Positions 53,986-57,879 of a DNA stretch of 64,000 bases are shown here, in pieces. The stretch comes from Pseudodesulfovibrio sp. JC047 (GTDB lineage: Bacteria; Desulfobacterota; Desulfovibrionia; Desulfovibrionales; Desulfovibrionaceae): positions 124,001 to 188,000 of the forward strand of contig NZ_WUEH01000002.1 of NCBI RefSeq assembly GCF_010468615.1, read 5' to 3'. The position numbers and the translations under genes were made by a program. Each line of letters begins with the position of its first letter. The stretch's first letter is position 1. The notes under the pieces were generated by a model that was given only the letters and a program-made list of their open reading frames with translations, was not told the origin of the DNA and made no database searches.

Positions 53986-54633
53986 TTATGAGGATTTTTT
54001 TTCCCACTCTTCCACTTCAAAGTCTTCAGGCACTTCTTCCCAGCCGGAAAACATGGCCGCCACATGTGCGGTCACTGAATGCCCCGTGGTCGTCATATAG
54101 ACATGAATGATCAGGAAGATGAGAAGGGCAAAGCCCCCGATCAGGTGCAACACAGCCACCACCCGAAGAGAAAGGAAACTCAAGCCCCAGTCAGCCCAAT
54201 TATTATATCCCCAATACAGAAAGCCAGTCACCATCTGGAACGGCAACAAAATGGCGGTCAGGCCAAGATAGGTCAACCGTTGCATGGGGTTGTGTTTGGC
54301 ACTCAGGGACTTGTGAACGGGATGATCTTCTCCTTTGAATATGCCGGAACTGTAATATCGTACCACTTCGAAAAGCTTTTTGGTGGTCGGGATATACTGT
54401 TTGTATTCGTGCGTGACAAACATCCAGAAAACAAAGAAAAAGAACATGCCAAGCCACAACAGCCCCACGGTATTGTGCAGGTCGACCGCCCCCATGAACC
54501 CCAACAACTCAAAGGAGCCGTGGATTTCAAATCCTGTTAACAAAAGCAGAATGATCGTGACAGCCTGAAACCAATGCCAAAACCGTTCGAACTTGGAATA
54601 CAGATATATTTTTTTCATGGATTTTTGATGCAT
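53986..54633 (-). CDS. Cytochrome b561-type membrane subunit
   Basis: A 215-residue protein with four membrane helices and heme-ligand His residues in the pattern of formate-dehydrogenase gamma/b561 proteins (F-E-R-F-W-H-W-F, D-L-H-N-T-V-G, V-L-H-L-I-G-G, L-I-I-H-V-Y). It lies three bases after the octaheme cytochrome gene on the same strand. The pair resembles a quinol-oxidising membrane module feeding a periplasmic multiheme reductase. Direction of electron flow (menaquinol to the octaheme protein) is inferred. Confidence 0.93.
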   Translation of the reverse strand: MHQKSMKKIYLYSKFERFWHWFQAVTIILLLLTGFEIHGSFELLGFMGAVDLHNTVGLLWLGMFFFFVFWMFVTHEYKQYIPTTKKLFEVVRYYSSGIFKGEDHPVHKSLSAKHNPMQRLTYLGLTAILLPFQMVTGFLYWGYNNWADWGLSFLSLRVVAVLHLIGGFALLIFLIIHVYMTTTGHSVTAHVAAMFSGWEEVPEDFEVEEWEKKSS

Positions 54634-54636
54634 GGC

Positions 54637-56358
54637 TTACCTCTCTTTCCTTTTGAGCCCTGAAGTAAAGCGCATGACGCCATGAACCACGACCGCAAAC
54701 AATGCGATACCAACGCCAAACCATCCCATGGAATCCACAATTCGTGTCGTGTCCCGACCCGGCAGATACACCCCTGAAAGGGTTGCAAGCCGACCATCAG
54801 GGGCATGACACTGCATACATTTGAGCGCGTGTTCCCGAGGCGCGACCATATGCGTGGTGGGGAAGGCATACGCTGTTTCAACAAACCCGAATTCGCCGCT
54901 GTACTGCTGCCCCGCGTATTTCATGCCGACCTCAATGGCTTTCTCCCAGTCAAACCCTTTCCAATAGGCAGTCTTGTCCGTCTTATCAAAAGGATAGAGA
55001 TGCGGAATCACCATGGTCTTGTTGATCTTGTCATAGGGTGAGATGGCCCGATGGACCTTGAACGGCATGATTCGAGAATCCGGGTCGTTCAAATCGCCTT
55101 TGGGCCGATTCAACCACACCGCTCCCGAAGGATCAATGGCGTCTTCGGTCGTGACATGATCCATTGTTCCATCAAACCAATAATATTCTGGAACCACGTC
55201 CTTTTCCCAAACAAATTCCCCTTTTTTCTTGAGAAAAATGGGTTTTCCCGCAGGTCCGATGACCTTGGACTTGCCACCGACCAGCCGACCGGCTCTGGAC
55301 CAATCCCACCACATCTTGGTGGACTGCGCACGGGCGAATTCAGGAATGTGACACGCCTGACAGGCCACCCTGTCGGTGTGGTCATTGAGTTTGGAATACA
55401 TACCCCCGCTCATGTGTGGCTGATCGCCATGGCAAGATTCACACATGATCTTGTCTCCAAGGTCATCCTGAAGCAGACTCTTGCGCTCAACGGCAGCCGG
55501 TTTTTCATAAATTCGCCCGGCAATATGGTGATTACGCGTGGTGTGACATCGGGTACACGCAAAATCCTGCCCCCCGGATCCCCTTGTGCCCATATGAACG
55601 TCGAGTGTCTTGTCTGGATTCACCAATGATGAATCCAGATCTCCATGTTTAACGGCATCTGCCCCACCGCCGAAGAAATGGCAGGTGCCACAATTTTTCC
55701 GTGTCGGTCGCCCAACAGACTGAGCCACCAACGACCAATCTGGGGCAAAATAGGTTTTCCCATTTGATTTGAACACCACCCCTTTCTGTTCACCTGGATG
55801 CAGCGGGTCCGCGACATATTTCGCAGGGTAGCCAGCGCCAGCCGGAAACTTCTTGTACGTTCCCGTGCGTTCATGACACACGAGACAGTCAACTTTTTCC
55901 TGTGACGAGAAATCAAAATGGATGTCCTTCCAACCATACCCGGCATGACATGATGTGCAACGAGCCTCGTTGCTTGCCGTGTTAATTCAGAAATTGTTGA
56001 CGGAAATGCCCCCTTTTCCGAATTTGGCAGGATTGCCGGCCTCATCCTTGTCGCGCCATGTCCAGTGGATTGTTTCATGAAACTGCAACGCGGCCAGGTT
56101 GTGACATCCGAGACACGCCTTGGTCACCGCTTCAGGTTGCATGGTCTTCTGGGCTTCCGAGTCAAATCGCAATTGCGCAAACTGACTGTGATCCGCCGTG
56201 ATCGTCTGTGTCAGCGGTTTTGCCTTGGTCGCCTGAATAGCCAACTTTCTGCCAGGAGCATTCTCATGATCCACTGCGGCCCACCCAACTCCAACATGCA
56301 CCACCACAAGCAACACTGCCAGGGCCATCAACAGCAGTCGCCGATTCCGAGTAATCAT
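54637..56358 (-). CDS. Octaheme cytochrome of tetrathionate-reductase (OTR) family with in-frame TGA, probable selenoprotein
   Basis: A 573-residue protein if the in-frame TGA at 55989-55987 is read as selenocysteine at residue about 124. N-terminal signal-anchor (about 6-25) and C-terminal membrane helix (about 545-565). Eight heme sites in one frame: C-L-G-C-H upstream of TGA, and C-T-S-C-H, C-L-V-C-H, C-G-T-C-H, C-T-R-C-H, C-E-S-C-H, C-Q-A-C-H and C-M-Q-C-H downstream. Reading through gives G-I-S-V-N-N-F-U-I-N-T-A-S-N-E-A-R-C. In the OTR family I recall a Cys close to the active-site heme in this stretch. A SECIS-like hairpin follows the TGA. Sequence on both sides is free of decay. The ATG at 56358 has CAGGAGG. 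A b-type cytochrome gene follows. Confidence 0.85.
55957..55989 (-). promoter_or_regulatory. Bacterial SECIS-like element after the in-frame TGA
   Basis: After TGA (55989-55987) there are 13 bases, then GCAACGA-GGC-TCGTTGC (55973-55957): a perfect 7-base stem with a GGC loop. The loop starts 20 bases after TGA, inside the range usual for bacterial SECIS elements, and begins with G as these do. Confidence 0.7.
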
Positions 56359-56526
56359 GGATAACCTCCTGTTACTCTCTCCCGCCATTTCCCAACGGTC
56401 TCACGAGCCCCAAAAGATACTCGTTTACCTATATGTGCATGTTTTCACGAAGAATGTCCATGAATCGAATTATTTTTACGGTCATTTGGTACTATTTGTA
56501 TGAAAACGGGGTATTATATCCACATT

Positions 56527-57531
56527 CTATCCCTTAAGAGGGGGAGAAACCATGTTTTCGACCACGGCCTGGGGAAACCCGAAAATCCGTGAGGTAAACC
56601 GCACGTACCAGGCGGCGGACTGCACCTGTATGACATAGGCCAAAGCCAGGACCAGAGCGGCATCCGAGCCTTTTTGGCCAAATGCATTCAGGGCGATGGC
56701 AAGGGCAATGGACAGGTTGCGCATGACCGACCCATAGACCAGGGCGATAGCGTCATCTCGTGACAAAAAGAACTTACCTATAACAGTACTCAATACAAAA
56801 TTCACCGAATAGATCAAAATAAGCGGTACGAGTATATCGAACAAGACTTCCGGGGCCGAGACAATGGTGCGTGCTTTGAGAGCCAGAGCCACAAACACGA
56901 TCCCAAGAACACCAAGGGTGGAAATCGGAGGGAACTTTGGTCCCACCTTTTTTTGAAAAACAGTCTGCCCATATCGTTTGACCAAGGCCCGTTGGGTCAC
57001 AAATCCCAAAAACATGGGCAAAAATACGATCAGCACAATCTGTTTGAAAACGGCCAGAATCTCTATGGACAGTGTTTCTCCCATGAGTGCCTGCACATAC
57101 ACAGGGGTTGCCAACGAGCCACACACCAGCCCGATAACGGTCATCTTGATGGCGGCAGACATGTTTCCCTTGGCAAACCCGGTCCAGGAAATGGTCATTC
57201 CACTGGTCGGGACCAATCCGACCAAAAGCAGTCCGAGGGCCAGGGAGGGAGCGTCTTTGAAAAAAAGGAGACCAATGCCATACGCCAAAAAAGGGACCAC
57301 CCCGAAATTCAAGAGCTGTGTCAGTATTTGAGCTTTGCCATCGCCCCCCTCAAAGACCTTTTTGATCTTGAGCGTGACCATCATGGGGTACACCATGAGA
57401 AAAGTGAACGGGACGATCAGGGCTGTAAGCCAGCGCGCGTCGGCAAACAATCCATACAGAAACCCGGCCGTCATCATCACAGGGATGGCGACGACCAGAT
57501 TTTTCGTTATTTTTTGAAGGATTCCAAACAT
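56527..57531 (-). CDS. BASS-type sodium symporter / arsenite permease-like protein
   Basis: A 334-residue protein with about ten membrane helices of the bile acid:sodium symporter superfamily, which also contains ACR3 arsenite exporters. The conserved G-L-V-P-T-S-G-M-T-I-S-W (about 125-136) and L-V-Y-G-S-V-M-R-N-L-S-I-A-L-A (about 267-281) are visible. No arsR or arsC is adjacent, so arsenic resistance is not supported by context; other substrates (organic acids, sulfur compounds) are possible. The gene follows a zinc-ribbon gene on the same strand after 21 bases. Confidence 0.88.
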   Translation of the reverse strand: MFGILQKITKNLVVAIPVMMTAGFLYGLFADARWLTALIVPFTFLMVYPMMVTLKIKKVFEGGDGKAQILTQLLNFGVVPFLAYGIGLLFFKDAPSLALGLLLVGLVPTSGMTISWTGFAKGNMSAAIKMTVIGLVCGSLATPVYVQALMGETLSIEILAVFKQIVLIVFLPMFLGFVTQRALVKRYGQTVFQKKVGPKFPPISTLGVLGIVFVALALKARTIVSAPEVLFDILVPLILIYSVNFVLSTVIGKFFLSRDDAIALVYGSVMRNLSIALAIALNAFGQKGSDAALVLALAYVIQVQSAAWYVRFTSRIFGFPQAVVENMVSPPLKG

Positions 57532-57771: not shown

Positions 57772-57879
57772 GAGAACCTCCTTACAGTGTTTTGTTCTGA
57801 TGTGCCTTCACCCTATCCATTCAACAGCGGTCAGCCATTGATCTCGATCAACACAACACACTTTTTTCAGGATTTCTTC

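What the first reader, a model, noticed from the sequence alone, without database searches (positions are those of the whole stretch)
54637..56358. Probable selenocysteine-containing octaheme cytochrome of the tetrathionate-reductase family
A single in-frame TGA (55989-55987) splits an otherwise intact eight-heme protein. One CxxCH site lies before it and seven after it, all in the same frame, with normal coding on both sides. A perfect hairpin GCAACGA-GGC-TCGTTGC starts 13 bases after the TGA, so its G-starting loop lies 20 bases downstream, as in known bacterial SECIS elements. The context (N-N-F-U-I, then C-T-S-C-H) is where, as I recall, OTR proteins carry a Cys beside the active-site heme. 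Replacing that Cys with selenocysteine would change the chemistry of a reductase for tetrathionate, nitrite or hydroxylamine. It is coupled to a b561-type quinol oxidase subunit.
Basis: partly seen in the sequence, partly recalled or inferred. Interest (0 to 1): 0.88.

Follow-up and report, generated by a model that had tools for sequence, protein, structure and literature searches.

The report
Selenocysteine octaheme cytochrome beside cytochrome b561
A relative of sulfate-reducing bacteria carries a predicted eight-heme respiratory reductase in which an apparent stop codon is read as selenocysteine exactly where relatives have an invariant cysteine; the protein family was already listed as containing selenoproteins, but the comparison here is strong and shows how widespread the selenium form is.

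Summary
An in-frame TGA (55989-55987, minus strand) interrupts an otherwise intact eight-heme protein of the OTR family (TIGR04315), followed 13 nt later by a perfect 7-bp, GGC-looped hairpin. Residue 124 aligns with Cys64 of Shewanella OTR, 1SP3. In 83 distinct homologous loci the codon is TGA (40) or Cys (43), nothing else. The own genome has selA, selB, selC and selD; its selD has an in-frame TGA and the same hairpin layout. In TGA forms the hairpin codons are frozen at nucleotide level, in Cys forms not. A second, unrelated hairpin marks a separate clade of 23 selenium forms. Selenocysteine insertion is thus very well supported by comparison, not shown biochemically. A b561-type cytochrome gene follows in 82 of 83 loci. 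The family already stands as 'GenBank annotated' selenoprotein in a 2026 review table (PMC13188914), without Sec motif, so this is a new member of a known kind. Added here: position, two SECIS types, repeated Sec/Cys changes, spread (26 of 44 other strong hits in a phylum sample). Substrate unknown.

The parts
54637..56358 (-). Selenocysteine-form octaheme c-type cytochrome of the OTR family (573 aa, one TGA read as Sec), with N-terminal and C-terminal hydrophobic helices (predicted)
   Evidence: helices from the sequence and from the low-confidence model
55987..55989 (-). In-frame TGA, residue 124, aligned to Cys64 of 1SP3
   Evidence: TGA in 40 and Cys codons in 43 of 83 distinct loci
55957..55973 (-). 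SECIS-type hairpin GCAACGA-GGC-TCGTTGC, 13 nt after the TGA; its 3' arm encodes the first Cys of the heme II motif
   Evidence: the same 17 letters 13 nt after TGA in 19 loci (17 distinct), the other 23 TGA loci having the second hairpin type; codons frozen
55945..55959 (-). Second CxxCH motif (heme II, called the catalytic heme in Shewanella OTR)
   Evidence: heme II as catalytic heme from passages of PMC4484225
55648..55650 (-). Lys237, aligned to chain residue 153 of 1SP3; that this is the axial lysine is recalled
   Evidence: Lys in 83 of 83; a lysine axial ligand in Shewanella OTR, without number, in a passage of PMC12285233
53986..54633 (-). Membrane b-type cytochrome (PF01292) directly downstream; probable quinol-side partner
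   Evidence: homologue on the same strand starting within -60 to 200 nt of the stop in 82 of 83 loci (before it)
56527..57531 (-). SBF/BASS-type transporter upstream; seen only in close relatives, so not taken as a core part
   Evidence: found in 6 of 17 type A loci and in no other of the 83 (the loci hold limited upstream sequence)
57838..57851 (+). FNR-type palindrome TTGATCTCGATCAA (box recalled) between a divergent Crp/Fnr-type regulator gene and the cluster; possible operator
   Evidence: only match to TTGATNNNNATCAA in 64 kb, mean 0.08 in shuffles, 7 of 100 shuffles with one or more; same letters in 9 of 116 loci, repeats and own included; 137 nt before the gene start in L039

Best explanation
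The gene makes a periplasmic, probably membrane-anchored octaheme reductase of the OTR family. The ribosome reads the internal UGA as selenocysteine, using SelB, tRNA-Sec and the hairpin that starts 13 nt downstream. The selenium sits at the position of OTR Cys64, 10 residues before the attachment motif of heme II, the catalytic heme. Electrons probably come from the quinol pool through the b561-type subunit and pass along the hemes to the active site, where the selenolate would help bind or cleave the substrate, most likely a sulfur-sulfur bond (tetrathionate, polysulfide, thiosulfate) or else nitrite/hydroxylamine. Supported by comparison: Sec insertion site, SECIS constraint, family, partner gene. 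Inferred: location of the protein, electron path, selenium's catalytic role, substrate. The confidence given is for Sec insertion in an OTR-family protein; the catalytic role is nearer 0.6.
For: Family and alignment to Cys64. Sec machinery: selC 76.2 bits over cut-off (ARAGORN tRNA-SeC), selB 398.9, selA 601.2, selD 338.6 with one internal TGA; selD hairpin CTCCAGG-GGA-CCTGGAG has the same 13-nt spacing, 7 bp and GGN loop (read by eye). Homologues: 83 distinct loci, 40 TGA and 43 Cys codons at the column. Synonymous identity of codons 128-136: 0.88 vs 0.51 elsewhere (type A), 0.84 vs 0.45 (type B), 0.48 vs 0.43 (Cys forms). SelB at 1e-70 in 38 of 40 TGA genomes. b561 gene downstream in 82 of 83. 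TGA loci fall in 4 (type A) and 8 (type B) family groups. Hairpin meets the bacterial SECIS model in PMC13188914 section 5.
Against: No protein or 75Se data. SelB was not found in 2 of 40 TGA genomes (G367, 610 contigs, 96% complete; G665, 370 contigs, 81% complete) and was found in 32 of 34 Cys-form genomes, so its presence does not separate the two. No Rfam match in the stretch. Stems hardly vary, so base-pair covariation gives no support. The structure prediction failed (mean pLDDT 32.5), so distance to the heme was not measured. A same-genus relative with Cys (G229) shows selenium is not indispensable for the family.
Confidence: 0.93

Rival explanations
1. The TGA is a real stop: a nonsense mutation or sequencing error in a decaying gene.
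For: Under table 11 the gene falls into two ORFs.
Against: Same TGA in 10 other same-genus genomes and 3 further genomes of the family search and in 26 non-own hits of the phylum sample; all eight heme motifs of the own gene intact and no other frame break; hairpin codons frozen only in TGA forms.
Confidence: 0.02
2. Read-through of TGA by another amino acid (Trp or Cys by near-cognate decoding or a changed code).
For: The frame stays open under any sense reading.
Against: The column is otherwise Cys in 43 of 43 loci, never Trp; selA/B/C/D are present; the hairpin is conserved at nucleotide level.
Confidence: 0.03
3. It is a selenoprotein, but the enzyme reduces nitrogen compounds (nitrite, hydroxylamine, NO) and not sulfur compounds. 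(Not exclusive with the Sec reading; the odds are for this substrate question.)
For: Shewanella OTR reduces nitrite and hydroxylamine as well as tetrathionate (passages of PMC4484225); a Crp/Fnr-type regulator gene lies divergent from the cluster with an FNR-type palindrome between.
Against: An FNR-type box also fits plain anaerobic control; the box is within 1200 nt upstream in only 1 of 81 loci examined (in the own locus it lies further off, before the upstream genes).
Confidence: 0.35

Closest known systems
Octaheme tetrathionate reductase of Shewanella oneidensis (1SP3)
   Same: E 1e-108 in two stretches; Cys64 segment and the aligned lysine kept
   Different: Sec in place of Cys64; C-terminal hydrophobic helix and a b561 gene downstream, whereas the Shewanella enzyme is called soluble periplasmic in a passage of PMC6449678
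Selenoprotein entry 'Tetrathionate reductase family octaheme c-type cytochrome' (TIGR04315, WP_331457571.1) in PMC13188914 Table 1
   Same: Same NCBI family, listed with one Sec (I read section 5 and parts 1-2 of 3 of section 7)
   Different: Marked 'GA, GenBank annotated', Sec motif 'not available'; the parts I read say nothing on its position, SECIS, spread or function. Which hairpin type the accession carries could not be seen
ExtKL, predicted selenocysteine multiheme cytochrome of Geobacter
   Same: A multiheme c-type cytochrome predicted to carry Sec (passages of PMC5877670 and PMC1914089)
   Different: Another family (NF040886), five hemes; Sec appears to lie outside the N-terminal heme domain
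BOGUAY_2386 tetrathionate/nitrite reductase of orange Beggiatoaceae
   Same: OTR-type enzyme with a thiosulfate-reductase-like cytochrome b subunit gene among those downstream (passages)
   Different: No Sec mentioned in the passages seen; other thiosulfate/polysulfide reductase subunit genes follow too

Membership tests
OTR family (TIGR04315) | Score over the curated cut-off, full profile | tested here: met
   577.6 bits vs 375; profile 2-440 of 440 (TGA given as C)
OTR family (TIGR04315) | Eight heme-attachment motifs | tested here: met
   8 CxxCH
OTR family (TIGR04315) | Lysine axial ligand of the catalytic heme | tested here: inconclusive
   Aligned Lys237 in 83 of 83; ligation itself not testable; that residue 153 is the ligand is recalled
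OTR family (TIGR04315) | Tetrathionate/nitrite/hydroxylamine reduction | not testable with these tools
   needs purified protein
Bacterial selenoproteins | In-frame UGA aligned with Cys of homologues | tested here: met
   40 TGA, 43 Cys of 83; Cys64 of 1SP3
Bacterial selenoproteins | Bacterial SECIS: loop 3-9 nt with G in first two, stem 4-16 bp, loop 16-37 nt from UGA, energy -7.5 or lower | tested here: met
   7 bp, loop GGC, 20 nt, -14 kcal/mol for 50 nt; model from PMC13188914 section 5
Bacterial selenoproteins | selA, selB, selC, selD in the genome | tested here: met
   all over cut-off
Bacterial selenoproteins | Sec shown in the protein | not testable with these tools
   needs 75Se or mass spectrometry

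The most novel reading that the evidence does not exclude
The main form of this b561-linked octaheme enzyme in much of the phylum is a selenoenzyme, in which selenium beside a lysine-ligated catalytic heme does the bond cleavage: a heme-selenolate active site without a natural parallel that I know of (recall, not searched), gained or lost several times with at least two unrelated SECIS elements.
Probability: 0.4. Interest if true: 0.72.

Novelty: new member of a known kind. Interest (0 to 1): 0.45.

Why it matters
If selenium sits at the catalytic heme, natural Sec and Cys twins of one enzyme (down to one genus, and in G418 both in one genome) let the chemical role of selenium in a multiheme reductase be tested directly. 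A plain ORF reading splits this respiratory gene in two, so it can be missed in genome surveys, and the name 'tetrathionate reductase' may not describe its work there.

Tried and rejected
Pseudogene, sequencing error and other read-through were rejected on conservation. Hairpin energy alone does not prove a SECIS (202 of 562 codons of the gene are followed by a stem of 7 or more when G-U is allowed; z only -2.29). Rfam gave nothing in 54600-56400. One pattern search of the own genome for the same hairpin core after a TGA found only this gene, 1 match, and its reversed control pattern also had 1 match, so that search says little. The TAG reported inside the G276 hit lies at position 537 of 550 in a Cys form and is read as its true stop; the same holds for an extra stop near the end of L086. 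The BASS transporter was considered as a functional clue and dropped, since it was seen only in close relatives. SelB presence was tried as a separator of Sec and Cys forms and is not one. Structure prediction failed from a 9-row alignment; no fold search was made. Paper searches that name selenium or selenoproteins together with this protein or with multiheme cytochromes: (open-licence PMC only); in their listings and the passages I opened, only PMC13188914 names it; PMC9312934 (2022) had no hit for octaheme or tetrathionate. Searches were on OTR or its active site; Cys64 as a term was found in none of the 20 of 55 papers listed, and one search was too broad to use.

Rows dropped before counts: of loci L017-L115 I left out L027 and L028 (partial), L059-L061 (selA, selD and pattern loci), L066-L073 and L075 (repeat fetches), then L032 and L040 as identical; 83 remain. 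From all 26 non-own TGA hits but only 14 of 18 stop-free hits at 1e-140 or better were fetched; the 30 best loci plus G029, G115, G116, G276 and G224; so 40 to 43 is not a frequency. Several rows come from one genus (8 of 23 type B from g147; 11 of 17 type A from the window's genus, the two Pseudodesulfovibrio records counted with it). L025 is partly unreadable at heme motif 1. The second tree also left out L074. Both trees are quick ones.

Full report
What is there. On the minus strand, 56358-54637 is one open frame of 573 residues if the TGA at 55989-55987 is read as an amino acid. An AGGAGG lies just before the ATG. Eight CxxCH motifs are intact, one before and seven after the TGA. The protein scores 577.6 bits against TIGR04315, cut-off 375, and has PF11783. 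The one solved relative found at 0.001 is 1SP3, the Shewanella octaheme tetrathionate reductase, E 1e-108; in that alignment residue 124 falls on the Cys of NNFC, which I count as chain residue 64.

Is the TGA selenocysteine? The genome holds a tRNA-Sec gene (also found by ARAGORN), selB, selA (3.3 kb from selB on the same contig) and selD. SelD itself carries an in-frame TGA followed, by eye, by 13 nt, a 7-bp stem CTCCAGG/CCTGGAG and a GGA loop. The cytochrome has the same layout: 13 nt, GCAACGA/TCGTTGC, loop GGC. This meets the bacterial SECIS model as given in section 5 of PMC13188914. Hairpins as such are not rare, and the fold z-score is only -2.29, so the case rests on comparison.

Comparison. 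In the family search 81 of 288 genomes had a match at 1e-40; 14 hits, own included, carry one TGA: 11 in the window's genus (own included) and 3 in other genera. One further same-genus homologue of this class (G229) has Cys. In a phylum sample 69 of 395 genomes had a match at 1e-60; of the 44 non-own hits at 1e-140 or better, 26 carry one TGA and 18 no stop (counted by me from the listing; several are from one genus). I fetched and aligned loci: after removing duplicates 83 remain, with TGA in 40 and Cys codons in 43 (22 TGC, 21 TGT) at the column, and nothing else. This is the classical sign of Sec/Cys exchange.

Two hairpins. Each of the 40 distinct TGA loci has one of two hairpins: type A (17; GCAACGA-GGC-TCGTTGC, always 13 nt after TGA, protein NEARC; 4 family groups) and type B (23; CTGGTGC-AGGT-G(C/T)ACCAG, always 17 nt after TGA, protein NWCRC; 8 family groups). 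Codon choice in 128-136 is frozen in both (mean synonymous identity 0.88 and 0.84 against 0.51 and 0.45 elsewhere; the highest 9-codon windows that could be scored lie there), and not in Cys forms (0.48 against 0.43). The Cys forms mostly read NEPRC (E in 31, P in 28, R in 29 of 43), so the hairpin also dictates amino acids, including an added Cys in type B (23 of 23). Because the stems are nearly invariant, covariation gives no information.

History. In a quick tree type B is one side of a branch (SH-aLRT 99; 97 with the SECIS columns and L074 removed). Type A is not: the data reject one clade (p-AU 1.5e-5), and the fewest Sec/Cys changes on that tree are 6. So Sec was gained, lost or transferred repeatedly. 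These are quick trees with some long branches; the direction of change is not settled.

Context and working. A b561-type cytochrome gene lies directly downstream here and in 82 of 83 loci, all 40 Sec forms and 42 of 43 Cys forms, L074 being the exception. This suggests a quinol-fed complex; a cytochrome b subunit gene is also reported among those downstream of BOGUAY_2386. Shewanella OTR reduces tetrathionate, nitrite and hydroxylamine, with heme II as the catalytic heme (passages of PMC4484225) and a lysine axial ligand (passage of PMC12285233). The aligned lysine is kept in 83 of 83. That Cys64 lies in the active site of 1SP3 and that residue 153 is the ligand are my recall and were not checked on coordinates; the model is unusable. 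Selenium at this place would give a stronger nucleophile and a more easily reversed oxidation; that is inference.

Known or new. PMC13188914 (Table 1, section 7 parts 1-2 of 3) lists 'Tetrathionate reductase family octaheme c-type cytochrome, TIGR04315, WP_331457571.1' as a selenoprotein known from GenBank annotation, with no motif. My searches brought up no other paper that names it, in an open-licence library that lacks most subscription journals. ExtKL is another predicted Sec multiheme cytochrome. So the finding is correct, not first; the added value is the support by conservation, the two SECIS types, the partner gene and the spread.

Noticed in passing
type B loci, e.g. L080 near the TGA: In type B selenium forms the hairpin region reads NWCRC in 23 of 23, adding a Cys two residues before the heme II motif; an RNA element seems to write an extra Cys beside a heme site.
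   Followed up: partly
window 57838-57851: The only TTGATNNNNATCAA palindrome in 64 kb lies between a divergent Crp/Fnr-type regulator gene and the cluster, and also 137 nt before the gene in L039.
   Followed up: partly
L060, about 2403-2370 (minus): The genome's selD is itself a likely selenoprotein gene (internal TGA) with the same hairpin geometry as the cytochrome.
   Followed up: partly
hits to about residues 207-519 (e.g. G236, G253, G244): A second class of OTR-like proteins in longer open frames (about 720-1150 aa), without internal stops, occurs in the same genus and family; L074 (G224) is perhaps one, and no b561 match lies in its fetched stretch.
   Followed up: no
L077 and L114 (both G418): One genome carries both a Sec form and a Cys form of the enzyme.
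   Followed up: no
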